From assembly GCF_009939295.1 (NCBI RefSeq), contig NZ_WVIC01000025.1:1-64000 (forward strand): a stretch of 64,000 nucleotides of DNA. Reading direction: 5' to 3'. The position numbers and the translations under genes are program-made. The notes beneath the pieces were generated by a model that saw only the letters and a program-made list of their open reading frames with translations, ran no database searches and had not been told where the DNA came from. Below are positions 918 to 31,465 of the stretch, piece after piece (the stretch's first letter is position 1; each line of letters opens with the position of its first letter). Source of the DNA: Petrachloros mirabilis ULC683. Lineage in GTDB: Bacteria > Cyanobacteriota > Cyanobacteriia > Thermosynechococcales > Thermosynechococcaceae.

Positions 918-2509
918 ATGCCAGCCATTCTAGTCACTATCAAAGCTCTACAACCCATCCTGGCAACTTCGTTTCAGGGCGATCCTAACAGTGATGTCTC
1001 CTATGACTACATTCCGGGCAGCATGATTCGGGGTGCTGTAATTGGACGCTATTTACAACACCAGGAATTGGGAGAACTGGATTTGACAGATCTGGAAACA
1101 CAAAAACTCTTTTTTCAACCCAATCACACTCGCTATCTCAATGCTCATCTAGTCAGTCAAAAAGAACGGCATCGTACATTACCTGTACCTCGCTCCTGGT
1201 ACAAACTCAAGGATGCCGAAATCACAGAAAATGCAGGAACTAATATTTACGATCTGAGTTTAGAACAAGATGACCAACAAGAGTCTCTGAAGGTTATTCG
1301 GGATGGTTTTTGCGTCTTTGAAGATGGCTTTGTTCGACTATACACTCCTGAGCGGCGTATTAACATCCACAATAGCCGCGATCGCCGCAAAGGCCGCTCC
1401 AGCAAACGGGAAGATCAACCTAGCAGTGAAGGTGCAATTTTCCGATACGATGCGCTAGATACAAGACAAACCTTTCAGTCTGTCATTCTTTGCGAGGAAC
1501 GTAATATTGAGTTTTTCAAACAACTTTTAAGCCAACCCGACCTATGGTTGGGGGGATCACGCAGTGCAGGATATGGTCATACTCAAATTTTCTGCAAAAT
1601 TCAGGACTCGTGGCACGAGTTTCAAGCATTAGGAGATAAGGAGGATATTGATGCAGAACATCTCACAATTACCTTACTCAGTGATACTTTGCTACGAGAT
1701 GTCAACGGTCAACCCACTGCTAATCCAAGCCTGATTGCAGCAGCGATTAATACAGCCTGCGGCAGCGATCTCCCCATGCCTGAGTCAAAGCATATTTTCA
1801 GCAGCCAGACCTACATTGGTGGCTTTAATCGAAAGTGGGGACTGCCCTTACCCCAAGTACCGGCTCTGGCTGCTGGAACGGTGGTTGTCTTTGAAAATGC
1901 CCCCCTTACCGAGGAGCAGATGCAGCAATTGCACTGGCAGGGGATTGGCGATCGCCGTAATGAAGGCTTTGGGCGCGTGGCCATCAACTGGCATCGACGA
2001 GCAATACTTCAAGTCAAAAAGCCGCCCAAACCTCAAGCTTCACATCAGCAGCCTTCAATCAGTTCGCCATCATTGCCCTTAGCTCAGAGAATGGCGACGC
2101 AGCTTCTGCGTCAAAAACTAGACCAGCTTCTAAAAACAGAACTCGATCGCAGAAAACTAGAAGCCAGAAATATTTCCAACAGCCAGCTTTCCAGATTGCA
2201 ACTTATTGCTCGCAGAGGATTAAGTTCTGAACCAGCTAGCTTACAAGATGTTAGTGAATTTCTGAATCGTGACAACCTCACAAAAACGGCCTTGGAACAG
2301 TTTCAGAAGACTAGATTTAAGCAAACCAATGAGCCTTTTTATAGTTGGCTGCAAGATCGACTAAAGAATCCTCGCAGTTGGATTGCTCAACCACCGGAAG
2401 TTCAATTGAGCACAGAAGTCAAAGCAACCGTTGATGACTCATTGGCAACGGAGTACACCCTCAAGCTAATCATGGCAGTTGCAAAACAGGCAGCCAAGGA
2501 GAATCAACA

Positions 2510-2513
<4 letters not shown>
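918..2513 (+). CDS. csx10: Csx10 (Cas5-type RAMP of type III-D) with helical C-terminal extension
   Basis: A 531-residue protein of the Csx10 family, which takes the Cas5 place and caps the crRNA 5' tag in type III-D effectors. Two RAMP/RRM domains are visible. The first (about 1-230) has YDYIPGSMIRGA and the glycine loop LWLGGSRSAGYG near 209-220; the second (about 245-360) ends in IGDRRNEGFGRV near 342. Residues from about 370 onward follow a Pro/Ser-rich linker and are helical and charged, without RAMP motifs. In the III-Dv complex of Synechocystis a Cas5 domain is fused to a Cas11 (small subunit) domain, and this tail could be the equivalent; that is inference. Its stop overlaps the next start by 4 bases (ATGA). 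Confidence 0.85.
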
Positions 2514-5785
<3,272 letters not shown>

Positions 5786-5865
5786 ATCTACTACTTGCTC
5801 ATTCTTGAATCAAGTTTTATCTTTCTAATCTCATTTGTTCATATTCATTCTAGAAGCGATCGCCC

Positions 5866-8099
5866 ATGTTTCCCAAACACATTGCCTGCGTTACTGAATC
5901 TCGTCAAGCCCTCGCTCCTTATAATTTTGTCGAACTACCTGATCAGGTTGTTCAAGCCCAGCCTATCCCAGATGGCGATCGCTATCATCCCGATCGCCAC
6001 ACCGGAAAAATTGAATGCATCCTCACCACTGAATCTCCGATTTACACTCGTTGTGGCTGGTCACAAGAGGATTTTGCTCAATACGGAGATAAAGCATTTC
6101 ATGAATTACCAAATGAAATTCAGCAAAAACGGGCCAATTTTTTCATCAATCCTGTAACTCAACAGCCAATAATTCCTGGCAGTAGCCTGAGAGGAATGCT
6201 TCGCACCCTGGTTGAGATTGTTAGCTTTAGTAAAATTGATGAAGTTGCGGACTCTCAGCTAATTTATCGTGCAGTGGGAGACACAACTTCTCTGGGAGAG
6301 AGATACCGAGAACGACTACTAAAAAACTTAAGAAATAATGAATATATTTTTCTAATGCAAGCAGGTTATAAGCTGTTAAGCATCTAAACTGCATGTTGAT
6401 CGCTCTCAAGCCCTTGCTACAAGGGGATTGACCTGGAAATTTAAATGCCGATCAGCTTATGATCCAGACATTATCTGGTGGATGGAAAATCCGACCCGCA
6501 CGCGAGCTGGTTCAGAATGCCTCATTTGCCAGGATTGAAAAGGATGAGATTCCTAAAAATTTAAGCAAGTGGAGAAAATCAGAGAATGCTTATAATATTG
6601 GCGTTAGTGTAGATCCCATCAAAACTTTTTCTCACAATTACGGTAGAGTAAAACTTCGCTACGCAAAGGCTAAACCACTTGAAGGTGGTGAAGAAAATGG
6701 TGTTTTAATAAAGACAGGATCGGCACCTCGAAAGCACATGCAGTTTGTATTTGGGTTGCCTGAAACACATGATCGATCTGATATTTCTATTCCAAATGAG
6801 TTAATTGAAGAATACAAAAATCAGATTACTGAAGGACAGAAAAAGATTCTGGGTGCGGAGGGAGTTTTACTCAATAGCCAATCCGTCTTCTATCTTCTGG
6901 AAGAGAATCAACTGGTTTTCTTTGGGCACGCTATGATGTTTCGTCTGCCCTACAGGTCTTCAACAAGATCATTTATACCTTCTCAGTTGAGAAGTTCTGA
7001 AAACCTGAAAAATATTGAAACAACTGATTTTACTGATGCAATCTTTGGTTATGCAAGGGATCAAAAGCGAGAGGAAAATCAAACACGCTGCGGCAGAGTT
7101 TTTCTAACTGATTCAATATGTGTTAATTTTGAGCAAGAGAGACCTATTTCACCTAAAATACTAGCAAGTCCAAAGTCAACAACTTTTCAGCATTATCTTG
7201 TTCAGCCTGAAGAAATTAAAGCTGACCCGAAAAAGCTTAAACACTACGCTAGTGAACCAGTTTGCAAAACTGTTCTGCGAGGACATAAGCTTTATTGGCA
7301 TAAACGAGACATAATGCTCCCTCAAATTAGAGAAGCAGACATTGGAAAAATCAATAAATCAAAATCTCAGTATACGAAAATTAAGCCGCTCAAGCCAGGG
7401 TCTTTATTCAACTTCTCTATTCATTTTGAGAATCTCAGCAAGGTTGAACTAGGCGCGCTGCTCTGGGTGCTAGATCTTGCCCAGGATGAGAAATATCGGC
7501 TCTCCTTAGGAATGGGTAAGCCTTTGGGCTTGGGAGCCATCAAGATCACCCATAAGCTTTATCTCAACCAACGCAAGCAGCGGTATAAAACGCTTTTTAC
7601 CGATGAGCAGTGGTTTACAGGATACCCCGCTGAGCCGGATTCATCAAAACCCTATATCAAAGCATTTGATGCCCATATTCGTCAGGAAATTGGTGCCACT
7701 GAATCTTCACTAAAAAACGTGCGACGCATCAAAATGCTGCTGGCAATGCTGAGTTGGACTGAGGCACCACCTGCTGATCAAACTCGTTATCTGGAAATCG
7801 AACGGGATGCCAGCCAGCCCCACATTGGTACACCCAAAAAAGGCAAGGTTAATGAGTATGCCGATCGCCCAGTCTTACCCACGCCGCTGCAAGTTATTGG
7901 TTGGGAGGATTGTAACAATAAAAACGACAATCCCAACTCAGGAGATTCTGGAAAGGGCAACTCGCCCAAACCCACTTCACCCAAGCCAGACAAAGGCAAT
8001 CATGCCTCGTCTAAACCTCGAAAATCTTCCTCTGCTAGAACTGAGAAAACCAGTATGGCTGCTGCCCTTGAGCGGCCAAAACTTCCTAAGCAAAGATAG
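5866..8099 (+). pseudogene. TIGR03986-type RAMP (Cas7-like) gene split by a short insertion
   Basis: Two reading frames together make one RAMP protein of the TIGR03986 type (possibly the Cas7-with-insertion subunit of III-Dv). The N-terminal part, 5866-6387, has FFINPVTQQPIIPGSSLRGM and IYRAVGDTTSLGERYR and stops after MQAGYKLLSI. The rest, 6459-8099, resumes with LSGGWKIRPA and has LVFFGHAMMFRLPYR, GRVFLTD, TTFQHYLVQP, RGHKLYWHK, LGALLWVLDL and GMGKPLGLGAIKI, ending in a Ser/Pro/Lys-rich tail. Skipping 6370-6458 (89 bases) joins AGY to MIQTLSGGW in frame. In between are several stops and a CCCTTG-CTA-CAAGGG palindrome. A sequencing error cannot explain an 89-base extra segment, so the subunit is probably truncated. 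An 80-base gap separates it from Uma2. Confidence 0.8.
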
Positions 8100-8142
8100 G
8101 CAGTTTTTACTATAACAGGTGTTGGTTCCCTGGGTTCCCCGC

Positions 8143-8626
8143 CTGGTTGACTGACAAATCTTTTTCCCTCATCCCCCAACCCCTTCTTCTCCCAAAAGTG
8201 GAGAAGGGGAGCCGGAGTTAGGAACTAGGCTTAAAGCCCCTCTCCCGCTCTGGGCTACGGTGTACACACATCTCTAGGTAAACCCATTCCACCCTGCATT
8301 AGCCCCCCCGACCCCCCAAGTTTGGGGGGAGATCAACAAAAATTGGGACTATATTCCCCCCCAAATTGGGGCTACCGTGTACACACAAGTCTGAGAAAAA
8401 CGATTTCACCCTGCATTCGCCCCCTACATCCCCCATTCTGGGGGACTGTGAGATATTCAAAACCCCCCAAATTACGCCCTTCGGGCACGCTTCGCGAGGG
8501 GGGCAGAGGGGCGAGTGTAAGGATGTTGGAGGATTGTAGTCATCTTCTTAGATTTGTGTGTACACCGTAGCCCGCTCTGGGAGAGGGGTTGGGGTGAGGG
8601 CGGTTCGAGTTTTGTCAGTCAATCAG
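8143..8626. mobile_element. Miniature element, GACTGACAAA-end family, with 10-bp target duplication
   Basis: The ends are CTGGTTGACTGACAAA on the left and the reverse complement of CTGATTGACTGACAAAAC on the right. The flanking direct repeat GGTTCCCCGC lies at 8133-8142 and 8627-8636. No transposase is inside, so this is a non-autonomous element (MITE). A second element is inserted in it at 8255-8570; without that insert it is about 157 bases. Its arms carry the CCCTCA...CCCCAACCCC / GGGGTTGGGGTGAGGG motif seen at several other sites in the window. It sits between the end of the CRISPR operon and the convergent acyl-CoA dehydrogenase gene. No gene is supported in this 540-base gap. Confidence 0.85.
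8255..8570. mobile_element. Nested element with CTACGGTGTACACACA ends
   Basis: Inverted ends CTACGGTGTACACACA are perfect over 16 bases at 8255-8270 and 8555-8570. An 11-base direct repeat CCCGCTCTGGG flanks it at 8244-8254 and 8571-8581. The interior holds G/C runs of the CCCCCAAATTGGGG and CCCCCATTCTGGGGG type and a second partial copy of the left end near 8365, so it is itself composite. No coding region is supported. Confidence 0.8.
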
Positions 8627-8641
8627 GGTTCCCCGCTCTGA

Positions 8642-9796
8642 TCAATCCTGGCAACCTGCAAATGATCCAAGCGGCCTGCTTGTTCGTGTAAACTTTCCGG
8701 GATTGACCAACTGCTCCAGCGTTGCTTCTAGAATATCTGGGGTTTGCCCAAATATGGTAAAGGCCAGAGCTTCTCGGTAAACTCGCTGGGCTGGGTGATC
8801 GAGCCGATTGGCAGCTCCACGGGAGACTGTAACCGCAGCTTGGGCACAGCGGTGCGCCAGGTCAATGGCGGTGGCTCGCAGGTGCAATTGTCTGGGATAA
8901 GGGGTAGAGGTTTGCTGGGCTTGGTAGAAGTGCTGGCGGCAGTCTTCTAGATCTGCTTGTAAGGACTGAATAGCCTGTTGGCTGCTAACAGATAGGCTTG
9001 ATGTCTGCGTAGCCACAATGTCCAGACCTGCCTGGGCACACCCTAGGGCAAAGAACCCATGTTGAAGGGCATCTTGGTGATCGCGCCCCTGAAGCCATCC
9101 CGTAGGCTTGAGACACACTACTGCATCGGTTTCCAGGTGCCAGTCCTGGAGCGTCACGGTGACGGTCTGGGTCGAAGCCATTGCCACCAAGTCTAGGGGG
9201 TGACTCACGTGCAGCGTTCCACCCTCTGGCTGTGAGGTAGAGACCAGAGGAGCTATGCCTAGAACGGCTGACCCATTGGCACAGGTGGCTCCGACAATAA
9301 AATGCTGGAAACAGCCTGCTCCTGTTACCCAGGGCACTTGTCCACTGAGAGAGAAACCCATATCCGTAAGTCGAGCTTGCACCCGTGGTAGTCCCTGGCG
9401 TCGCAGGTGCGAAATGCCAACGCCTAGGCCGATCAGTCCTGTCCCCATCTTGGGGAGGTACTGCTGCTGGAGTGCCAAATTGTCACTTTGCGCCAGCAGA
9501 GCAGCGGCACTTTGATGTTGGGTTTGCAAAAATGCCAGAGCACCCGAGTAACGACTGATGCGTTCTTGGAACTGGCGAAACGTTAGCATATCTAACTCTC
9601 GTCCGCCCCATTGCTGAGGAACCTGCAAGGTCAGGAGGTTGCGATCGCCCATGGCCTGAAAGACTTGCTTCAGAACCGAGAAATCCTGGTCAATCTGTAT
9701 AGATTGAGGGGCAACCCATCGCCATAAAAAGTCCTCAACCTCAGATAGAAAGTCTGCAACAGGCTCTACCAACATCCGATTTGCCTTGCCGGACAA
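8642..9796 (-). CDS. Acyl-CoA dehydrogenase family protein
   Basis: A 384-residue flavoprotein-like protein with the N-terminal helical domain (LLTLQVPQQWGGRELDML, about 52-69), the middle beta domain (GFSLSGQVPWVTGAGCFQHF, about 147-166) and a C-terminal helical domain (about 230-365). Acyl-CoA dehydrogenases desaturate acyl thioesters with FAD. The usual catalytic glutamate cannot be pointed to with confidence, so substrate and activity are open. An alternative start at 9775 (MLVEPVADF) would give 377 residues. It stands alone between repeat elements. Confidence 0.72.
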   Translation of the reverse strand: MSGKANRMLVEPVADFLSEVEDFLWRWVAPQSIQIDQDFSVLKQVFQAMGDRNLLTLQVPQQWGGRELDMLTFRQFQERISRYSGALAFLQTQHQSAAALLAQSDNLALQQQYLPKMGTGLIGLGVGISHLRRQGLPRVQARLTDMGFSLSGQVPWVTGAGCFQHFIVGATCANGSAVLGIAPLVSTSQPEGGTLHVSHPLDLVAMASTQTVTVTLQDWHLETDAVVCLKPTGWLQGRDHQDALQHGFFALGCAQAGLDIVATQTSSLSVSSQQAIQSLQADLEDCRQHFYQAQQTSTPYPRQLHLRATAIDLAHRCAQAAVTVSRGAANRLDHPAQRVYREALAFTIFGQTPDILEATLEQLVNPGKFTRTSRPLGSFAGCQD

Positions 9797-9811
9797 ACAT
9801 CAAAACGGGTC

Positions 9812-9955
9812 TTAGAACCAGTTTGAAAAGATTCTAACGCCTTGCACCCGCCCCCTAAACCCCCCATTCTGGGGGACTTAAGCGTGATCAAAGCTCCCCA
9901 GAATGGGGGGTTGGGGGGCGAATGTAGAGCATGGGAAGACTTTTTAAAAAGTCTC
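9812..9955. repeat. G/C-palindromic MITE-like repeat (CCCCCATTCTGGGGG family)
   Basis: The core has two facing copies of CCCCCCATTCTGGGG / CCCCAGAATGGGGGG separated by about 20 bases (CTTAAGCGTGATCAAAG). Outer arms around GTTTGAAAAGATTCTAAC and GCATGGGAAGAC match the copy at 53226-53376 in reverse orientation. Limits are approximate. No coding potential. Confidence 0.7.
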
Positions 9956-10264
9956 CTAAGCTTTGCGGAAGAGGCTAACCCCCAACCGGAGTGGTGGAAA
10001 CACAGCGTGATAACGAACTTTTAGTCCCAAAATCATAGAGGTGAGACAGAGCGTCACCACATTGGCACAAATCACTGGCAGGTCATGGGTAAAGAGTCCA
10101 TAGACTAACCACAGGACAATTCCTACCGTGAGCGTGACTAGCATCGCCCAGGAAATATCCGCAGCAGATTTGGTCTGCCAAATCTTGAGAAGCTGGGGCA
10201 GATAAGCAATGGTGGTTAAAGCCCCAGCCAATAAACCCAGTAGCGTCATGTCATCCATAGCCAT
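9956..10264 (-). CDS. SemiSWEET-type sugar transporter
   Basis: About 100 residues with three membrane helices and the PQ-loop signature AGALTTIAYLPQLLKIWQTKSA of SemiSWEET proteins, half-size SWEETs that dimerise to pass mono- or disaccharides. The Pro-Gln pair lies in helix 1, and a WLVYGLFTHDLPVICAN segment spans helices 2 and 3. The start at 10264 (MAMDDMTLLG) is preferred over the longer frame from 10306 because family members begin just before helix 1; 10258 is equally possible. It lies on the same strand as the RuBisCO operon, after a strong hairpin, so it may be separately transcribed or receive read-through. Confidence 0.85.
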   Translation of the reverse strand: MAMDDMTLLGLLAGALTTIAYLPQLLKIWQTKSAADISWAMLVTLTVGIVLWLVYGLFTHDLPVICANVVTLCLTSMILGLKVRYHAVFPPLRLGVSLFRKA

Positions 10265-10332
10265 TATTTTAGCGTTTGTACCCGAGGGAATGACAACCTG
10301 GCTCATCAGGAAGGCAGAGCCTTACATGCTAT

Positions 10333-10392
10333 GGCGGCTGGTACGACAAACCCCCAAAAGATAGATGCTTTGGGGGTTTGTCGTACCAGCCG
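10333..10392. terminator. Perfect 25-bp inverted repeat after rbcS
   Basis: Arms at 10333-10357 and 10368-10392 are exact reverse complements (GCGGCTGGTACGACAAACCC on) with a 10-base loop. It lies 46 bases beyond the rbcS stop. There is no long T run, so it is either a terminator without a tail or an mRNA-stabilising stem for the rbcL-X-S transcript. Confidence 0.65.
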
Positions 10393-10438
10393 CTGAAGCT
10401 CACACCGCTTCACCAATCAGCAATTGGCTTAGAGGCAA

Positions 10439-10759
10439 CTACGGCTTGTGAACGATAAAGCTGAGCACTTGGCACTGCTTGATGTTGTCAAAGCCAACCA
10501 CGCGGATATAGCAGCGGGGGTAAGACCCCCGACAGTCTTGTACTTCTCGCAGCACTTCATGGGTGGTGGTGGCGTTGAACATGGGCAACTTCCACATGGT
10601 CCAGTAGCACTCTGTGGGTTCAGAGGTTTCGTTGAATTCAATGGCTGGGAAATAGCCATTGTCTAAAACATACTGAATTTGGCGGTTGACTTGATCGTCT
10701 GAGAGGGGGGGCAGATAAGACAGTGTTTCGTAACGGCGCTCTTTAGGGAGAGTTTTCAT
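10439..10759 (-). CDS. rbcS: RuBisCO small subunit
   Basis: A 106-residue small subunit of form IB RuBisCO. It starts [19 protein letters not shown] and has [20 protein letters not shown] and VREVQDCR-like and [13 protein letters not shown] segments typical of cyanobacteria. The ATG at 10759 is preferred to an upstream start at 10789 because GAGGA lies 5-6 bases before it and family members begin here. It is the third gene of rbcL-rbcX-rbcS and packs as four-subunit caps on the RbcL octamer in the carboxysome. Confidence 0.97.
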
Positions 10760-10815
10760 GATGTCCTCAATAACGTTAGGTGTACGCAAAAAATCAGGAG
10801 GATGATAAGGCTTGA

Positions 10816-11226
10816 TTAGCTTTCTGTGGCATCTGCTGCATCTGGAGTTTGTTCAAGGGGGAGGTCACTCAAGGTCGGATCGACTTGGGTCATGCGCTCA
10901 AGCTGCTGACGACGCTGCTCCATGTTGGCTTGCTCTAGGCCAGAACGCAGCATTTCTGGTAGGAAGTCTGCAAGTTCGTTGGCAATGTGCGATCGCACCG
11001 TCAACAGTCGAAAGCCCAGCTCTGGATTTTCCCGAAACAACGCCTTCAGAAAAATCTCACCATCTTGAATACTTTCTCTAGCCGCAAACTGATGTAGCCA
11101 AAACCGTTGAATCGGATCAGTCTCTTTCAATTGATCAAGCACCACATGGAGCGCTTGGTAAGTGACATAGCTGATCAGCGTTTTGGTGGTGGCCTTCGCA
11201 ATTCGCTTGAGGCTGGATGAGTCCAT
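10816..11226 (-). CDS. rbcX: RuBisCO assembly chaperone RbcX
   Basis: 136 residues beginning [20 protein letters not shown]. RbcX is a helical dimer that clamps the C-terminal tail of RbcL (EIKFEFE) during octamer assembly. The conserved parts [24 protein letters not shown] and [16 protein letters not shown] are present; the acidic C-terminus is variable as in the family. The ATG at 11226 is chosen because upstream in-frame residues do not resemble the family and run into the rbcL-rbcX intergenic stem-loop. It sits between rbcL (100 bases upstream) and rbcS (57 bases downstream), the common cyanobacterial order. Confidence 0.95.
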
Positions 11227-22932: not shown

Positions 22933-23871
22933 GTGACGTGGATTTCGGGTCAAGATCTTTGGGACTGGTGGGTGCAGGCTCGAACCCAACTCACCACCCT
23001 GAGCGATCAAGCGTTTGCCACAACCCTTTCATCTGAACTTGAGTGGCTACTACAGTCGGTCGCTGATTTAGACCGCCTCAGTTTAAGATTGGCGAATTTT
23101 AAAACCGAAGCCCAAATTCAGACCCAGGTCTCACTTGCAGAACTGGAGCACCTCTGGCAGCGGCGACAACAAGAGCGGATGCCCATTCAATATCTTGTTG
23201 GCATCACTCCCTGGCGAGATTTTGAACTCAGGGTGCGTCCTGGGGTACTCATCCCTCGCCCTGAAACTGAGCTGTTGGTTGACTTGGCTGTAGAGGCCAC
23301 CCAGGGACAACAAAATTTGGATCCGGCTCACTGGGTAGATTTAGGAACTGGTAGTGGTGCCATTGCCCTGGGCTTAGCTCGGGTACTGCCCCAAGCCACC
23401 CTTCATGCAGTTGATCGCAGCCAACTGGCATTAACAGTTGCTCGACAAAACGCTACGGTGCTGGGGCTAGAATCACGCATTCGGTTTTATCAAGGCTCTT
23501 GGCTAGAACCTCTGACTCTACTGCGAGGTCACATTCAGGGAATTGTGAGCAATCCCCCCTATATTCCGGCAGCGATGGTCACAAACTTACAGCCCGAAGT
23601 CGCCTGGCACGAGCCACGCTTGGCCTTAGCTGCGGGGGCAGATGGGTTAAGTGCCATTCGGGAAATTGTGGCTCAGGCTTCTGGGTATCTGGTGCCGGGA
23701 GGGGTCTTGCTGATGGAAATGATGGCAGGGCAAAGTGAGGCAGTCGTAGAGTTGCTGCGATCGCAAGCTCACTATACCCAAATCCAAATCCATGCAGACT
23801 TGGCCGGCATTCCCCGATTTGCCCAAGCCCATCGCATCCATCCAGACCCATCCACCCAGCCAACACCTTGA
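22933..23871 (+). CDS. prmC: Release factor glutamine methyltransferase PrmC (HemK)
   Basis: 312 residues from a GTG start. It has an N-terminal helical domain, MPIQYLVGITPWRDFELRVR (about 77-96), VLIPRPETELLVD, the SAM loop WVDLGTGSGAIALGLA (about 135-150) and the catalytic SNPPYIP (about 202-208). PrmC methylates the GGQ glutamine of RF1 and RF2. The only start near the family N-terminus is this GTG with TAGGGGT before it, coupled to the tic22 stop. Converges with the secreted CHAT gene, 25 bases away. Confidence 0.93.
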   Translation: MTWISGQDLWDWWVQARTQLTTLSDQAFATTLSSELEWLLQSVADLDRLSLRLANFKTEAQIQTQVSLAELEHLWQRRQQERMPIQYLVGITPWRDFELRVRPGVLIPRPETELLVDLAVEATQGQQNLDPAHWVDLGTGSGAIALGLARVLPQATLHAVDRSQLALTVARQNATVLGLESRIRFYQGSWLEPLTLLRGHIQGIVSNPPYIPAAMVTNLQPEVAWHEPRLALAAGADGLSAIREIVAQASGYLVPGGVLLMEMMAGQSEAVVELLRSQAHYTQIQIHADLAGIPRFAQAHRIHPDPSTQPTP

Positions 23872-23895: not shown

Positions 23896-26800
23896 CTACC
23901 AGGGGTTCCCAATCATCGTGATCCCACTCCAAAAATAAGGGTGAGTCAGATCAAACCCCCTTTGGCCTTCCAACTCTGGTGGCAAAGGTAACCGCACCGA
24001 TGGGGTCACTAACATACCATTTTCAACTCGCACCTGTCCCGTGAGCATCGCCATCTGAGTGCGACGCAGCGCCTCAGCCTTAATCGGGGCTTCACGCAAG
24101 TTGGCATAGAAATTAGTCATAAAACCTAGGGTTCCTAGATCGCTAATGAACCACAGACCTCCCATGGCAGTCTGTACCCCAGAAGCAACCGCCAAACCAG
24201 TAAAGCCAAGTTCTGCCTGGCGATCTCCAATCGCAGTCCGGCAGGCACTTAAAACCAACAGCGAAGTTGTCGTGGGGTCAGTGAGCCCCAGCTCTCTCAA
24301 CTGATTGAGCCGCACCTTCTGATCCCAAAACTGAATATACGACCGCTCGGGATTTCCAGGCAGAAAATCTCCGTGACTGGCCACATGTACAATGCCATAC
24401 TCTGAGACCTCCCGTGCCTCTCTAAGATTACTTGGGGTAAACCTTTCATTGAGCAGAGATTCCCCCGGCCAGAGTTGAGCAGAAATGGTTTCTAACTCCA
24501 GCGGCACCGACGGCAGTGGCGCTTGATCCGTAAACCGATCGGCACCCATGGCCAACACCTGCATATTTTGCACATTGGTAGGCTGAGTGTCTGCCAGCGA
24601 AATACTGGGCATAAAACCAACACTATAGCGTTCGACCACAAACCCCGTGCCATCATGGAGCGCAGCCAAGGGCAAGGAGCGCAGCCCCTCATCCATAACA
24701 AAAACTAGGTTATTGACCCCCTCGGCGCTCAGGGTTTCTTCTAAGGGAGCAATCAGCCATTGATATAGCTCCTGAGCCAAGGGCAAATAGGGGGTTCGTC
24801 GCTGAAACTGCGTAATCGCCTGCTGAAAATTCCTGACCGTACGCAGCATTCGAGTTCGGGTAGCCTCAGGCACTTGATGACGTGTCACCCGACCATCTGG
24901 GGTCACTAAAACCAGCACCAATTGATCCAAGTCTTGCGATTGGCGCTGAGGCGGCAGCACTTGATCCCAACCACAGACATCAAATTGCCAGAGCGGATCT
25001 GAAGAACTAGCAGGACGATCACCCAGACACTCTAGAACCGAATTTTGCGCGAGAGTCCTGTCCGCCAAAGGCTGCTCAGAAGCCACTAGATATGGTGAAT
25101 TGGCCGAATTGACTCCAGGGTCAGCAGCAGCAGGTGGCGCAAAAAATGCATAGATTAGCGCAGGGGTGACCTCTGGAATCGCATTAGCTTGAGAGAGAAT
25201 CGCCTGCACCTGCTCAGGGGTCACGGCGGTAGATTGTGTTATCCCCAGATAATTTAGGAAATCAAAACTCAGTAGCCGATCTAAATCGGCAACATCCGCA
25301 TTGGCACTCGGACGAATTGGCAAAGTTGTAGCCGTCAAGGGATCCTGAAGCAACCCCGGATCCTCTAGCCCAACCTCATCTGGAACATTAATTTCAGTTT
25401 CAACCCGACCCGAATCTGTATTCTCGGGTGGGTTAATTGGCGGTGGCGGTGGCGGCGGTGGTGGTGGGGGTTCGATAGGTGGCGGTGGTGGGGGCGGCGG
25501 TGGTGGGGGTGGCGGTGGCGGCTCGATGGGTGGGGGCGGTGGCTCGATGGGCGGCGGGGGCGGGGGTGGGAGTAACTCTTCCGACTCAAATGCACCAATA
25601 TCAGATCTGCCGCTCTGAGGTCGGGCAACCCCTCGCTGATCCGTGGTTAAGTCAGAGGCGGGATTCGCCGCATTCTGGGCAGGACTCCCAGAGACAAGGG
25701 CATGGGTTTGCGTTGGCCCTCCGTTATCCGCCAGAGGTGCCAAAACCGATTCTATGGCACCCGCTAAAACCAGGTCGGTGGCGGTGGTGGGGAAGCCCCC
25801 CGCATTCCCATTTTGACCAACTAAATTAAAGCCAAGGGAGGTAAACGAGGCTGAATTATCGACTTCAGGATTGCTAGGTGCGGTATTGCCCGCCACAATA
25901 CTGTTGGCAACCGTAGCTTCACCCCCAGCAGAGTAATCTCCATCAAAGCCCTGGCTATTGACAATCGCTCCCCCTGACTCACTGGCCTGATTATCGGTAA
26001 TTGTGCTGTGGTTAATATTCAGAGTTCCCCCCTCATTGAGGATTCCTCCTCCAACCACAGCCTGGTTTCCAGAAATCGTACTGTTGATCACTCTGAGCGT
26101 GTCGTTGTTAAAAATGCCCCCCCCTCGGCTCGCTGAGTTACCGGCTACGGTGCTATTGAGCACTTCAACCGTACCGACTTGGTTATAAATCCCGCCACCA
26201 CTCCCGGCGGTGTTGCCGGTAATGGTGCTGTTAGTCACCGTAATGGTGCCATTGTTGTAAAGTCCCCCCCCCAACTGAGCAGAGTTCCCTGAGATGGTGC
26301 TATTGTTGAGGGTTAACACCCCTCCTGGGAAGTTATCAATCCCACCGCCAAAGGTTCCCCCCTGGTTATTGGTGATCAGGCTGTCGGTTACCGAGAGAAT
26401 ACCTCGGTTATAGATGCCGCCACTAAATATACTGACCGTATTCCCAGAAATGGTGCTGTTCAAAACGGTTAATGTACCGTCATTGGTGATTCCCCCCCCA
26501 GTTGCAGCAGAGTTATTGGTGACAGCGCTATTGGTCAGGGTTAAGTTTGCTCCTGTACGGACTCGAATGCCGCCGCCATCATCATCACGTCCTGCGGTGA
26601 CTTCTACACCCTCAATGGTGACTTCTCCAGCGCTGACATCAAAAATCCGGGACTGCTCATTTCCACTAATGGTCAGGTTGTCAACCCCAGTTCCCTGAAG
26701 GGCAATTGGGGTGGCGCTATTGGTAAAGACCAGGGATGAACCCGCAAGGGTAATGGTTTGGGGGGTACTGAATATCCCAGCAGTATCAAATCGAATCGTA

Positions 26801-29757
26801 TTGGGTTCTGGATTCGCTAAATTTAGGGGATGAAAGTTGACATTGGCATTGGCAAAACTAACGGCTGAGCGCAGACTCCCGATACCCGCATCGTCTTCTT
26901 GGCGTGTCACCACATAGGAAGAAGTTGCTTCATAGGCTCCAATATCAACGCGATCGCCTGCATTCAGGCCCGTGGGTGAGCGCTCACCCCCCCGCTGATC
27001 AATGCCCAGTGGATTCTTTGTGAGCGGATCAATGGCCAGATCATTGCTACCCGCATCAATAGCAGGGCTGCCCGAAACTAAGGCATGGGTCTGAGTTGAG
27101 CCTCCATTATTGCCTAGGGGTGCTAGGACTGTATCAATCGAACCCGCTAAGACAAGATCGTTGGCATTGGTTGGAAATCCCCCCGAGTTGCCATTTTCAC
27201 CCACCAGGTTAAAGCCCTGGGAGGTAAAGGTGCCAGCATTTAGCACCTCTGAATTGGTGCTAGCAATATTCCCCGCCACAATGCTGTTACCGATCGTGAG
27301 AATACCTGGCCGACCCACTTCGCCAATGTAAGCATTATTGGCATTGACAATTCCACCACCCGCAATCGTGGCACTGTTGTCAGTAATGGTGCTGTTCACA
27401 ATGGAGAGGGTGCCACCATAGTTGACAATTCCTCCTCCTGTGCCCTCAATGCCAGAGGGCGAGGCGGGGGGTGGCTCGACTAATTCCGCCCGGTTGCCAG
27501 AAATGGTGCTGTTGACAATAGTGACATTGGTATCAACGATGCCGATGCCCCCAGCAGCAAAGTTGGTGGTGTTCCCAGAGATGGTGCTATTGGAAATGCG
27601 AAGTGTCCCGCTGTAGCTGGCAACTCCCCCTCCCCCTCTCTCGGAAAAATTAGATGAGACCGTGCTATTAAGAATCGATAATTCTCCGCCTAGATCTGCG
27701 ATGCCGCCAGCCCGACCCGTCAGCTCTAACACTGGCCCTTCGGAAGGAAGCACAGATCGGTTGCCTGAGACGATGCTATTGAGCACCGTGACCCTGCTAT
27801 TGGCTCCTACTAAAATCCCGCCACCTGGAAGGAGGGAAGCTTGACCATCCTGAATACTCAGCCCTTCCAAGGTCACAGTCCCAGCCGAAATATTAAAAAC
27901 CCGGCGGGCATTTTCACCACTGACTAGAGAACTCTCGGCACCCTGACCGCGAATGCTCAGGTCTTTGCCAACAATGGTTACCACGTCTGAATCGCTGCCG
28001 GTGAAGTTGCCAGCCGCCACGTTAACTGTAGCTCCTGAGGCTGAGACATCTACGGCATTCTGGAGAAGATCTCGTTCGGGCTGATTGGCATTGACGATGC
28101 TGGCTTCTCCGGTCAACGCCTGACTTTCTCCTAGGCGAATGGGAGCATTGAGATTGACGGTGAGGTTGCCGTCGGCGTTTTGATCACGCAGTGCCAGGGT
28201 GTTGGTGTTGGTTTGGGCACTACTGTCAATGAGGGCATCGACTTGAATCAGCTCATTGGCGGCTAGATCGACATTGCCGGTCTCTAGGGCATTGACTACG
28301 ACGCTGGCAGCTACGGTGTGATCTCCGGTGTCTGGCCCAGGCAGGGTGTTGCCGGTACTGGTTGCGTCAATGAAGAGTCGATCGGGATCTAGCAGCCAGG
28401 TGCCAGATTGCCCCTGGGTCGCTCCTACGTCGATTTGGGCGGTATTGGCAATGCTCAGCCCTGTCTTACCAGAGGTTTCCACAAAGCCCCCATCCCCAGC
28501 TTCCGCCCCGCCCTGGGCTGAAATTGTGCCATCCATGGTGGTCAACCCATCTGACCAAACCACAACCCGACCCCCATCCCCACTGGTCAGGGCATCAGCA
28601 TTCAGGGTGGCTCCGGCTGCCAGGGTGGTTTTCTGAGCAGGGGGAATGCTACTTTGCCCGAGTGGGTCGCCCCCAATCAGGATGGTACCCCCGCCGCGAT
28701 CGCCTGCGGCCACAGCCTGAGCAGACTCTGTTAGCTCAATGGTTTCACCTGAGATTTCAATGCGCCCCCCCCTATCTCCTGGATCTGAGCCCGTGGCATC
28801 CAGCATCCCTGAGACTTTGACCGACCCAGTATCGCCCCCTGACAACACAATTTGACCCTGGTGATTCTCGACGGTGCGTGCCTGAATGACGCCATCCATA
28901 TTGATGATCTGGTTGACCACCTGGGATCCAGCTTGGGCACTGAGCGTTACGACTCCACCATCTGCTTGCACAGTACCGCTGTTGCTCACCAAGGCACTCA
29001 GGGGCTGGCCGTTGGCTCCAACCACTTGATTGGCAAGGCTGGGATCGACCGCGAGGGAAATTAAGCCGTCCCCATAAAAGTCGAGGGTGGCTTCTGTTCC
29101 TGAGGCCAGGGTGACCTGACCCAAGCGAGCCTGAATCACACCCCGATTGGCGACGCCTGGGGCGACTAAAGCGGCAAAGCCGCCGTCTCGAACGGTAATG
29201 GTGCCCTCGTTTTCCACGGAAGCAAGGGGGCGACCTGGCACCTGGCGCAGGTGCAGGTGGCCATTCATAAAATCTTGAGTCTGGATGTCGAGGGTGGTGG
29301 CGAGTAAGCCCCCCACGTCAATTCTGGCGGTGGGTGTAAATAAAATGCCGTTAGGATTGACCAGCATAATCTGGCCGTTGGCAGTAATCCGACCGGCAAT
29401 CTCGGAGCTAAAAGCGCCTGTGACTCGATTTAGGGTGGCGGAGGTGGCGGAGGGCTGCTGAAAGTCCACCCAATTTTGCGCTGAGACATCGAAGCGATCC
29501 CAGTTGATCACGGCGCGATCGGTGGACTGGATAATGTTGAGCCGATTTGACCCCACGGGCTGAATTTGTGCTTGGCCTGCCTGGACGGATCCGCCTTGGG
29601 GCAAGGCCCAGGCAGGTAGGGTAGTGGTTCCAACCAATAGCGTTGGCAGTCCGAGCACCCAAGCCGAAGGCCACCCCATCCAGCATACCCAGCCCCAGAA
29701 ACGGGGAGGAAACTGGGAACGAAAACCAGGCCAAAAACGGTACAGCGGTGAAGTCAT
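23896..29757 (-). CDS. Two-partner secretion exoprotein with beta-helix repeats and C-terminal CHAT domain
   Basis: About 1,953 residues. A signal region (to about 52, ending PAWALPQ) leads into the haemagglutinin-type TPS domain (about 55-180: VINWDRFDVSAQNWVDFQQP, LVNPNGILF). A long right-handed beta-helix region (about 230-1390) carries some fifteen NSTISGN-like rungs and two copies of a FNLVGxNGN...LAPL...STQTHALVSGSPA block. A Pro-rich linker (about 1395-1442) precedes a CHAT domain (about 1590-1950) with His1795 in VASHG and Cys1839 in LSACRTA, the caspase-like dyad. The ATG at 29757 is preferred to a TTG at 29784 inside the partner gene. The cell probably exports it to the surface through the TpsB protein upstream; what it cleaves is unknown. 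Confidence 0.9.
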   Translation of the reverse strand: MTSPLYRFWPGFRSQFPPRFWGWVCWMGWPSAWVLGLPTLLVGTTTLPAWALPQGGSVQAGQAQIQPVGSNRLNIIQSTDRAVINWDRFDVSAQNWVDFQQPSATSATLNRVTGAFSSEIAGRITANGQIMLVNPNGILFTPTARIDVGGLLATTLDIQTQDFMNGHLHLRQVPGRPLASVENEGTITVRDGGFAALVAPGVANRGVIQARLGQVTLASGTEATLDFYGDGLISLAVDPSLANQVVGANGQPLSALVSNSGTVQADGGVVTLSAQAGSQVVNQIINMDGVIQARTVENHQGQIVLSGGDTGSVKVSGMLDATGSDPGDRGGRIEISGETIELTESAQAVAAGDRGGGTILIGGDPLGQSSIPPAQKTTLAAGATLNADALTSGDGGRVVVWSDGLTTMDGTISAQGGAEAGDGGFVETSGKTGLSIANTAQIDVGATQGQSGTWLLDPDRLFIDATSTGNTLPGPDTGDHTVAASVVVNALETGNVDLAANELIQVDALIDSSAQTNTNTLALRDQNADGNLTVNLNAPIRLGESQALTGEASIVNANQPERDLLQNAVDVSASGATVNVAAGNFTGSDSDVVTIVGKDLSIRGQGAESSLVSGENARRVFNISAGTVTLEGLSIQDGQASLLPGGGILVGANSRVTVLNSIVSGNRSVLPSEGPVLELTGRAGGIADLGGELSILNSTVSSNFSERGGGGVASYSGTLRISNSTISGNTTNFAAGGIGIVDTNVTIVNSTISGNRAELVEPPPASPSGIEGTGGGIVNYGGTLSIVNSTITDNSATIAGGGIVNANNAYIGEVGRPGILTIGNSIVAGNIASTNSEVLNAGTFTSQGFNLVGENGNSGGFPTNANDLVLAGSIDTVLAPLGNNGGSTQTHALVSGSPAIDAGSNDLAIDPLTKNPLGIDQRGGERSPTGLNAGDRVDIGAYEATSSYVVTRQEDDAGIGSLRSAVSFANANVNFHPLNLANPEPNTIRFDTAGIFSTPQTITLAGSSLVFTNSATPIALQGTGVDNLTISGNEQSRIFDVSAGEVTIEGVEVTAGRDDDGGGIRVRTGANLTLTNSAVTNNSAATGGGITNDGTLTVLNSTISGNTVSIFSGGIYNRGILSVTDSLITNNQGGTFGGGIDNFPGGVLTLNNSTISGNSAQLGGGLYNNGTITVTNSTITGNTAGSGGGIYNQVGTVEVLNSTVAGNSASRGGGIFNNDTLRVINSTISGNQAVVGGGILNEGGTLNINHSTITDNQASESGGAIVNSQGFDGDYSAGGEATVANSIVAGNTAPSNPEVDNSASFTSLGFNLVGQNGNAGGFPTTATDLVLAGAIESVLAPLADNGGPTQTHALVSGSPAQNAANPASDLTTDQRGVARPQSGRSDIGAFESEELLPPPPPPPIEPPPPPIEPPPPPPPPPPPPPPPIEPPPPPPPPPPPINPPENTDSGRVETEINVPDEVGLEDPGLLQDPLTATTLPIRPSANADVADLDRLLSFDFLNYLGITQSTAVTPEQVQAILSQANAIPEVTPALIYAFFAPPAAADPGVNSANSPYLVASEQPLADRTLAQNSVLECLGDRPASSSDPLWQFDVCGWDQVLPPQRQSQDLDQLVLVLVTPDGRVTRHQVPEATRTRMLRTVRNFQQAITQFQRRTPYLPLAQELYQWLIAPLEETLSAEGVNNLVFVMDEGLRSLPLAALHDGTGFVVERYSVGFMPSISLADTQPTNVQNMQVLAMGADRFTDQAPLPSVPLELETISAQLWPGESLLNERFTPSNLREAREVSEYGIVHVASHGDFLPGNPERSYIQFWDQKVRLNQLRELGLTDPTTTSLLVLSACRTAIGDRQAELGFTGLAVASGVQTAMGGLWFISDLGTLGFMTNFYANLREAPIKAEALRRTQMAMLTGQVRVENGMLVTPSVRLPLPPELEGQRGFDLTHPYFWSGITMIGNPW

Positions 29758-29761
29758 CTCT

Positions 29762-31465
29762 CTAAAAGAAGCCTGTGACAACAAAGAAAACTCTGGGGTC
29801 AGAACGGGTGCTGGGGTCGGTGCTTTGCACTGGAAAGGCCAGCTCTAGACCCACGGAAACCAGGGAGCCAAATTCATGACGAACGCCCAGCCCTGCGGAG
29901 CTGAGGGTGTCTGAGCGATTTTCGGCGAGGGTGCGGGTGTTGCGGAACACCTGACCATAGTCGGCAAAAATGTAGGGTTGGGTGGCCTGGGTCAGCCCCA
30001 GTCCAGAATAGAGGAATGACCGTCTCAGTTCGGCGCGGAAGCCATAACCGGAATCTCCTAAAATCTGGTCGGGGTCAAAGGCACTGCCGAAGATAGATCC
30101 ACCCAGGCCAAATCGTTCCCGAGCTAGAAGGGTGTCTCCAGTGACTTGAGCGGTTCCTTGGAGCCGAAAAGAGAATTCTCCGGGTAGGGGCTGAATCCGC
30201 CCCACATTGAAGTTGAGCTTGGTGAAGATGGCGCTGCCTTCAGCCCGGGAGAGGGGTTCGGTGGCGGTGCTGGGTCGGGTTCCGGCAATGCCCTGGGAAA
30301 GCTGAATTGCTCCCAGGGTGAGGCCGTAGGGGTCAACTTGTTCGGCCTCAAGGTTGAAACGAAGCACATGCAGACGATCTTGGCTGAGAACTTCCCGTAT
30401 GCCTGTGAAGTCAGTGGTGCTGCGGCTATCGGCGTAGTCATAACTTCCGCCAATGAAGAGGTTGGTGGTGCGCGATCGCACCAATGGGTAGCTCACCCCT
30501 GCCCCAACCGCAAAGGTTCGCCCCCGGAGTTGAAACACCTTGAGATCGCCCCCAGGTCTTACCCCCGTGAACGAAGTATTGGCATTGAACGTCAGTCCTT
30601 CGTGACCCACAGGCAGGGCAAAATCAAACCCCCCAAACCCAAGAGCTGGGGGATCATTGGGCACGGTCGCCCCTCGCAATAGCCATGCTTCCCCCTGAGC
30701 TAGGGGCGAGTTCAGGTAAACACCAGCCTGGGCTCGCAATGGCCCGACGGCATCTGTGCCCCGATTGGTGAGATTGCCAAAGCCTTCCACTGGGTTGTGA
30801 GTGACCCGACCCAAGAGCTGCGCTGCCCCCAGTTCACTGCCTCGACGCAAGATAGCCCGAACCTCTATGCCTGCCAGGTCATTGGCCAAGAGTAAATAAC
30901 GCTCTAGAGCTCTGATGTTGAGCGGCCTTGCCGCCACAATCTTGTCTCCAAAGCCCTGTAAGCGCCGCAGTTGGCGAGGCGAAGCGCCTTCAAACTCAGC
31001 TTCTTCGACATAGCCCTCAATCACTTGAATCCGGGCGACTCCGGTTTCAATGGTTTGCTCCGGCACAATGGCCAGAGACAGAATATAGCCATCCTGCCGA
31101 TAGAGTCGGGTGATTTGATTGGCAATATTGTAAAGATCGAGCAGGGTGGTTTCTTGATTCAGAAATGCTTGATAAAACGGCTGCAACTGTTCAGGGGCAT
31201 AGACAGTTACGCCTTCAATTTCCAGTTCTAGAAGTTGAAATCGCAGATCCTCAGCCCCAGAAGGAGGCGTCAGCTCTTCCTGTTGAGGGAGGTCAATGCG
31301 AGGTTCTGGCAGGGTCAGCGTCGGAGGGGGGAGTTGTTGCTCAATCCGACTTGGATCGGGACTGGGTTGAGCCAGGGTGGGCAGGTTCACAACGAGCAAC
31401 CCCACCATACAGCTCCCAACTACCCCTGAAACTTGCTTCAAATCGTCTAATTTAAAAATAGCCAC
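29762..31465 (-). CDS. TpsB/ShlB/FhaC-type outer-membrane transporter
   Basis: 567 residues. A signal peptide (GSCMVGLLVVNLPTLAQ) and a Pro-rich stretch are followed by a POTRA domain (about 55-130: LQLLELEIEG-like strand, LYNIANQITRLYRQDGYILS) and ShlB middle region (VARIQVIEGYVEEAEF, RPLNIRALERYLLLANDLAG). The remaining 350 residues form a 16-strand-type barrel ending in Phe (VVTGFF), as outer-membrane proteins do. TpsB proteins recognise the TPS domain and move the exoprotein out. It ends 4 bases before the exoprotein start, so the pair is one operon. Confidence 0.92.
   Translation of the reverse strand: MAIFKLDDLKQVSGVVGSCMVGLLVVNLPTLAQPSPDPSRIEQQLPPPTLTLPEPRIDLPQQEELTPPSGAEDLRFQLLELEIEGVTVYAPEQLQPFYQAFLNQETTLLDLYNIANQITRLYRQDGYILSLAIVPEQTIETGVARIQVIEGYVEEAEFEGASPRQLRRLQGFGDKIVAARPLNIRALERYLLLANDLAGIEVRAILRRGSELGAAQLLGRVTHNPVEGFGNLTNRGTDAVGPLRAQAGVYLNSPLAQGEAWLLRGATVPNDPPALGFGGFDFALPVGHEGLTFNANTSFTGVRPGGDLKVFQLRGRTFAVGAGVSYPLVRSRTTNLFIGGSYDYADSRSTTDFTGIREVLSQDRLHVLRFNLEAEQVDPYGLTLGAIQLSQGIAGTRPSTATEPLSRAEGSAIFTKLNFNVGRIQPLPGEFSFRLQGTAQVTGDTLLARERFGLGGSIFGSAFDPDQILGDSGYGFRAELRRSFLYSGLGLTQATQPYIFADYGQVFRNTRTLAENRSDTLSSAGLGVRHEFGSLVSVGLELAFPVQSTDPSTRSDPRVFFVVTGFF

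What the first reader, a model, noticed from the sequence alone, without database searches (positions are those of the whole stretch)
23896..31465. Two-partner secreted CHAT protease-like exoprotein
The C-terminus of the TpsA carries an intact CHAT His-Cys dyad behind a Pro-rich linker, where TPS toxins place their effector. A surface-exposed caspase-like domain delivered by TpsB could act on neighbouring cells, on the host envelope, or as a signalling protease. CHAT domains are known with TPRs, HetF and Csx29, but their exported form is barely studied.
Basis: partly seen in the sequence, partly recalled or inferred. Interest (0 to 1): 0.65.

Follow-up and report, generated by a model that had tools for sequence, protein, structure and literature searches.

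The report
Exported adhesin with caspase-like protease tip
A cyanobacterium carries a long secreted surface protein that ends in what looks like a working caspase/separase-type protease; the same fusion is found in many cyanobacteria with the active site always intact, it does not behave like a toxin, and nobody appears to have studied it.

Summary
Window 23896-29784 (-) encodes a TpsA exoprotein (Pfam TPS, 1e-35) with a C-terminal CHAT domain (2.6e-64), right behind its TpsB (29762-31465). An AlphaFold model of the last 433 residues (pLDDT 86.6) matches Csx29/TPR-CHAT (Z 25.9), separase (23.8) and gingipain (19.8) over its whole length. So the 'linker' after the Pro-rich tract is largely the first half of a separase-like protease.
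It is not unique. CHAT relatives occur in 123 of 386 cyanobacterial species; 58 of 59 long CHAT ORFs tested carry a TPS domain, and His and Cys are present in 67 of 67.
The toxin reading is not supported: no recurrent immunity gene, and the CHAT tip is as conserved as the secretion domain (61% v 63%) while the shaft diverges (38%), the reverse of CDI toxins.
Best reading: an exported, active, separase-like endopeptidase on a variable beta-helical shaft, acting at the producer's own surface. Whether CHAT ends outside or stays periplasmic is open, and the substrate is unknown. No paper in the searched library describes it.

The parts
23896..29784 (-). TpsA-CHAT exoprotein ORF, 1962 aa from TTG; probable start ATG at 29757 (codon 10)
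29605..29757 (-). signal peptide, by reading of the sequence (codons 10-60, ...TTTLPAWA|LPQGG)
   Evidence: no signal-peptide predictor was on hand
28819..29604 (-). TPS secretion domain (residues 61-322)
   Evidence: Pfam PF05860 1e-35; residues 59-480 match solved EtpA 1.5e-67 and HxuA 5.4e-35
25570..28818 (-). beta-helical shaft (residues 323-1405), two choice-of-anchor Q matches, right-handed-helix-type repeats
   Evidence: NCBIfam NF041518 5e-40; rhombotarget A structure 2e-5 over 1158-1300
25429..25569 (-). Pro-rich linker (residues 1406-1452)
24859..25428 (-). pre-CHAT region (residues 1453-1642); from 1530 on it was modelled and aligned with the protease fold of separase/Csx29
   Evidence: model residues 1-433 align; conserved A1542 and Y1545
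24973..25029 (-). Cys pair C1586-x17-C1604 in the low-confidence loop of the pre-CHAT part, possible disulfide
   Evidence: same spacing in L043
23899..24858 (-). CHAT protease domain (residues 1643-1962), ends at the last codon (IGNPW)
   Evidence: Pfam PF12770
   Evidence: 67/67 long homologues
   Evidence: 67/67; single Cys in CHAT in 64/64 complete ORFs
29762..31465 (-). TpsB outer-membrane transporter, 567 aa, upstream in the same operon
   Evidence: POTRA_2 3.6e-19, ShlB 2.7e-24

Best explanation
The protein is exported by Sec and then handed to TpsB (homology shown; export inferred). The TPS domain and beta-helical shaft thread out N to C, and the last part, a separase/Csx29-like cysteine endopeptidase with an intact His-Cys dyad, is carried at the C-terminal end on a flexible Pro-rich tether. 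It is most likely an active protease that works at the producer's own surface or matrix: it trims this or other surface proteins, or shed proteins of neighbours. The divergent shaft sets where it works; the conserved tip sets what chemistry is done. It is not a CDI-type toxin. Shown: the parts, intact dyad, fold, breadth, conservation pattern, lack of a recurrent partner gene other than TpsB. Inferred: export, activity, location outside the outer membrane. Unknown: substrate and trigger.
For: TPS + CHAT + adjacent TpsB. N-terminal third homologous to the solved TPS beta-helix EtpA. CHAT part models at pLDDT 86.6 and pTM 0.88 and aligns over its whole length with TPR-CHAT/Csx29 (Z 25.9), separase (Z 23.8), and over most of it with gingipain R (Z 19.8). 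His and Cys invariant in 67/67 long homologues, which argues against a pseudoenzyme. H-to-C spacing of 44 residues, compared with 42 (H585/C627) in the active TPR-CHAT protease (PMC9729208). 58/59 long CHAT ORFs carry a TPS domain. CHAT identity 61% against 63% for TPS and 38% for the shaft over 964 non-independent pairs; CHAT exceeds the shaft in all. Apart from further TpsA genes, TpsB is the commonest family enriched beside 136 long ORFs (19 near, 1 far). Extra Cys occur mostly as close pairs, as expected in an oxidising place.
Against: No experiment. No conserved cleavage site seen in the linker and no known substrate. Separase D2151, which reads the P1 Arg, is not conserved in TPR-CHAT (K670, PMC9729208); the equivalent here was not determined, so specificity is unknown. 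C-termini of HMW1, HxuA and CdrA stay in the periplasm (PMC5422565), so surface exposure cannot be assumed. The one-Cys economy of CHAT also holds in TPR-type CHATs, so it does not itself show export. Only 19 of 136 have TpsB within two genes, though window and L043 both do.
Confidence: 0.5

Rival explanations
1. Outer-membrane-spanning sensor: the shaft is outside, but the CHAT protease folds and stays in the periplasm, plugging TpsB, and is switched on when the shaft meets its ligand; it then cleaves the TpsA itself or a periplasmic target.
For: C-termini of HMW1, HxuA and CdrA stay periplasmic; in HxuA a disulfide loop is described as locking the C-terminus in the TpsB pore (PMC5422565). 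The window and L043 have a C-x17-C pair 40 residues before CHAT. Related standalone CHATs with signal-like N-termini and no TPS are probably periplasmic. CHAT proteases are known to be switched allosterically (PMC9729208). DdvA, which matches the model at Z 19.4, is titled a transmembrane anti-sigma factor in the PDB.
Against: 30 of 64 complete TpsA-CHATs have no Cys but the catalytic one, so a disulfide plug is not general. No conserved signalling neighbour.
Confidence: 0.27
2. Self-maturation protease: CHAT cuts its own or a sister TpsA to release the shaft from the cell, as SphB1 does for FhaB in trans.
For: Protease fused to its likely substrate; flexible linker present; several tandem paralogues.
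Against: No conserved site seen in the linker, which varies freely in sequence and length.
Confidence: 0.13
3. Antibacterial or anti-eukaryote toxin delivered by the TpsA, CDI-like.
For: Effector sits at the C-terminus, as in CdiA.
Against: No recurrent immunity gene beside 136 homologues; downstream gene in the window is a convergent PrmC-type methyltransferase. Tip conserved, shaft variable, the reverse of CDI.
Confidence: 0.06
4. Non-catalytic fold used as an adhesin cap.
For: No activity is known.
Against: His and Cys without exception in 67/67.
Confidence: 0.04

Closest known systems
TPS exoproteins EtpA, HMW1, HxuA (type Vb)
   Same: TPS domain and beta-helical start, own TpsB gene; EtpA is the nearest solved relative of residues 59-480
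   Different: They end in anchors or binding parts, not in a protease
LepA of Pseudomonas aeruginosa, a protease secreted by TPS (PMC5422565)
   Same: TpsA that is a protease
   Different: A protease of another kind (trypsin-like, from own knowledge); no CHAT/caspase fold reported
Csx29 / TPR-CHAT of type III-E CRISPR (Craspase)
   Same: CHAT fold with His-Cys dyad, Z 25.9
   Different: Part of a CRISPR effector complex, TPR-bearing, RNA-switched; here no TPR, TPS exported
Separase
   Same: Protease fold aligned over the whole model, Z 23.8
   Different: Eukaryotic, cuts cohesin; 13-14% identity
Gingipains
   Same: Secreted caspase-fold cysteine proteases of a bacterial surface, Z 19.8
   Different: Other export route (type IX, own knowledge), other family (C25)
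CDI toxins (CdiA)
   Same: Effector at the C-terminus of a TpsA
   Different: CDI has a variable tip and an immunity gene; neither was found here

Membership tests
Two-partner secretion exoprotein (TpsA) | N-terminal TPS domain | tested here: met
   PF05860 1e-35, above cut-off
Two-partner secretion exoprotein (TpsA) | cognate TpsB gene | tested here: met
   POTRA_2 + ShlB ORF directly upstream, same strand
Two-partner secretion exoprotein (TpsA) | beta-helix after the TPS domain | tested here: met
   phmmer to solved EtpA 1.5e-67 over 59-480; the rest by repeat type only
Two-partner secretion exoprotein (TpsA) | Sec signal peptide | tested here: inconclusive
   clear by eye (AWA|LPQGG) but no predictor run
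Two-partner secretion exoprotein (TpsA) | found at the cell surface or in the medium | not testable with these tools
   needs proteomics
CHAT protease (PF12770, clan CD) | CHAT sequence profile | tested here: met
   2.6e-64, 217.9 bits against cut-off 24
CHAT protease (PF12770, clan CD) | His-Cys dyad | tested here: met
   H1804/C1848; 67/67 homologues
CHAT protease (PF12770, clan CD) | caspase/separase fold | tested here: met
   Foldseek E 2.1e-14 to Csx29; Z 25.9 to TPR-CHAT
CHAT protease (PF12770, clan CD) | His-Cys distance compatible with catalysis | not testable with these tools
CHAT protease (PF12770, clan CD) | proteolytic activity | not testable with these tools
   needs an assay
CDI / polymorphic TPS toxin | immunity gene next to the toxin | tested here: not met
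   no recurrent downstream family in 67 and 136 loci; PrmC-type gene in the window
CDI / polymorphic TPS toxin | constant body, variable C-terminal tip | tested here: not met
   CHAT 61% v TPS 63% v shaft 38%
Craspase (Csx29) | TPR domain in the CHAT protein | tested here: not met
   only TPS and CHAT found in the protein
Gingipain (C25) | C25 sequence family | tested here: not met
   no such Pfam match; fold similarity only

The most novel reading that the evidence does not exclude
TpsA-CHAT is an outer-membrane-spanning switch: shaft outside as sensor, caspase-like protease held in the periplasm at the TpsB pore and released or activated by contact. That would be an outside-in proteolytic signalling device built on type Vb secretion, widespread in cyanobacteria.
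Probability: 0.2. Interest if true: 0.8.

Novelty: new variant of a known kind. Interest (0 to 1): 0.5.

Why it matters
Caspase-fold proteases of bacteria are mostly discussed as internal cell-death or CRISPR enzymes. Here many members of one phylum have put an intact separase-like one on an exported fibre. That makes an extracytoplasmic role of bacterial caspase relatives directly testable in culturable strains, and adds a conserved enzyme tip to TPS systems, whose tips are usually toxins or anchors.

Tried and rejected
(1) Nested origin of the window's CHAT among the other TpsA-CHATs: the quick tree suggested it, but the AU test did not reject the window plus L043 as sister to all others (p 0.94), so no transfer is claimed from the tree. 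(2) Cys economy as proof of export: rejected as proof, since TPR-type CHATs also have one Cys. (3) Sequence search of the PDB with the CHAT profile: only chance matches (Pizza designs); the kinship shows by fold alone. (4) CHASE2 or histidine-kinase neighbours as partners: as common far as near. (5) S1 pocket and cleavage specificity: could not be settled without coordinates. (7) Papers: no description of a TPS-CHAT protein found; absence in an open-access library is weak evidence.

Full report
Observation. Pfam finds a TPS secretion domain at 61-322 (1e-35) and CHAT at 1668-1960 (2.6e-64) and nothing else; the ORF upstream, 29762-31465, has POTRA_2 and ShlB, so it is the TpsB. NCBIfam adds two choice-of-anchor Q matches in the shaft. 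The His of SHG is 1804 and the Cys of SAC is 1848, equal to H1795 and C1839 from the ATG. The Pro-rich tract runs 1406-1452.

Neighbourhood. Downstream lies a convergent PrmC-type methyltransferase (22933-23871, +) and before it a Tic22-like gene; upstream of TpsB, on the same strand, RsmG and an ABC ATPase. Nothing looks like an immunity gene.

Fold. Sixty sequences, window residues 1530-1962 and 59 homologues from named public contigs, were aligned. AlphaFold gave pLDDT 86.6, pTM 0.88; the weak part is a loop at about 1550-1620. Foldseek's best hit is Csx29 (2.1e-14). VIA-align puts TPR-CHAT/Csx29 at Z 25.9, separase at 23.8, DdvA and gingipains at 19-20 and caspases near 12; the Csx29 and separase alignments span the model from residue 1 to 433, while most caspase alignments cover only the second half. 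So the region between Pro-rich tract and Pfam CHAT domain is, from 1530 on, part of a separase-like two-part protease. His sits directly after the strand at model 269-273 and Cys in the strand at 313-320, the order usual for clan CD (own knowledge). The spacing of 44 residues compares with 42 in TPR-CHAT (H585/C627; PMC9729208).

Breadth. With the last 423 residues as query, 123 of 386 cyanobacterial species have a match at 1e-20 or better; this count includes standalone CHATs. Loci around 80 matches were fetched. Of 91 CHAT ORFs found in those loci, the own-genome loci and the window, 67 are long (over 700 aa), 20 are short (many 440-560 aa with signal-like N-termini, some cut by contig ends) and 4 are of TPR type. 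Of 59 long ORFs scanned, 58 have the TPS domain. In all 67 long ORFs His and Cys are present. The best 79 loci from a genome scan with an alignment are all cyanobacterial.

Two backbones. The window and its relative L043 (same family) carry a TPS of another type (LPQGG...INWDRFDV) from the common cyanobacterial one (NLFHSFxxFxL). By phmmer the window's residues 59-480 score 544 bits to L043 and 231 bits to EtpA but at most 119 bits to the other TpsA-CHATs. A search for this TPS type found it in six of 386 species; of eight ORFs, only the window and L043 are known to carry CHAT, and the C-termini read for the others end differently (the giant one was not read to its end). So the CHAT tip sits on two different TPS backbones. 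The tree does not say in which order this came about.

Toxin test. If CHAT were a delivered toxin, an immunity gene should recur. Over 67 and then 136 long ORFs the recurrent neighbours are other TpsA genes and TpsB; no other family stands directly downstream in more than nine. In 964 pairs with similar TPS domains the mean identities are TPS 63%, shaft 38%, pre-CHAT 41%, CHAT 61%; CHAT exceeded the shaft in all pairs and fell over 15 points below TPS in eight. Pairs are not independent, but the pattern is the reverse of CDI.

Place. TPS homology and the near lack of free Cys argue for export: in 64 complete long ORFs the CHAT has one Cys, the catalytic one, against three expected from neighbouring genes. 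The control weakens this: TPR-type CHATs also show one Cys, although a CHAT-CHASE2 fusion of the same genome has several. Extra Cys come mostly as close pairs; in the window C1586 and C1604, 40 residues before CHAT, with the same spacing in L043. A TPS review describes C-termini of HMW1, HxuA and CdrA as periplasmic, HxuA with a disulfide loop that locks it in the pore (PMC5422565). Hence CHAT may sit outside or at the inner face of the outer membrane.

Verdict. An exported, very probably active separase-like protease at the tip of a TPS fibre; a widespread, conserved and apparently undescribed variant.

Noticed in passing
L056, L058, L068, L079, L087, L091, L143, L168, L179 and others (N-terminal 260 aa): In 11 of 59 TpsA-CHAT ORFs a glycosyltransferase family 2 domain stands in frame before the signal peptide and TPS domain (Pfam 5e-32 in L058, 1.6e-35 in L179): GT2 - signal - TPS - shaft - CHAT in one ORF. 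It might glycosylate its own exoprotein before export and be cut off with the signal.
   Followed up: partly
G372:C1 about 921665-922894 (-), L209: A TPS-type N-terminus in an open frame of 20437 aa in a 2.6 Mb cyanobacterial genome; only the first 6021 aa were read.
   Followed up: no
window 918-3976 (+): Two CRISPR type III-D genes (Cas5 3e-162, Cas7 7e-152), 20 kb from the CHAT protein; no link between them was tested.
   Followed up: no
L011 4060-6513 (-), own genome contig C13: A CHAT-CHASE2 fusion (CHAT 2.2e-16, CHASE2 4.4e-58), a likely membrane sensor.
   Followed up: no
L008 7150-8799 (+), own genome contig C57: A standalone CHAT protein with a signal-like N-terminus and no TPS, 549 aa, grouping with one in L043.
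   Followed up: partly
L168 and L179, about 2350-10960: Tandem TpsA-CHAT paralogues; in L179 the TPS domains are 97% identical but the CHATs only 79%, which may be gene conversion of the secretion part.
   Followed up: no
L120 9281-13177 and 13237-14607 (+): TPS part and CHAT part in two successive ORFs, a split gene or frameshift.
   Followed up: no
window 6459-8099 (+): 546-aa ORF without any Pfam match at 1e-5.
   Followed up: no
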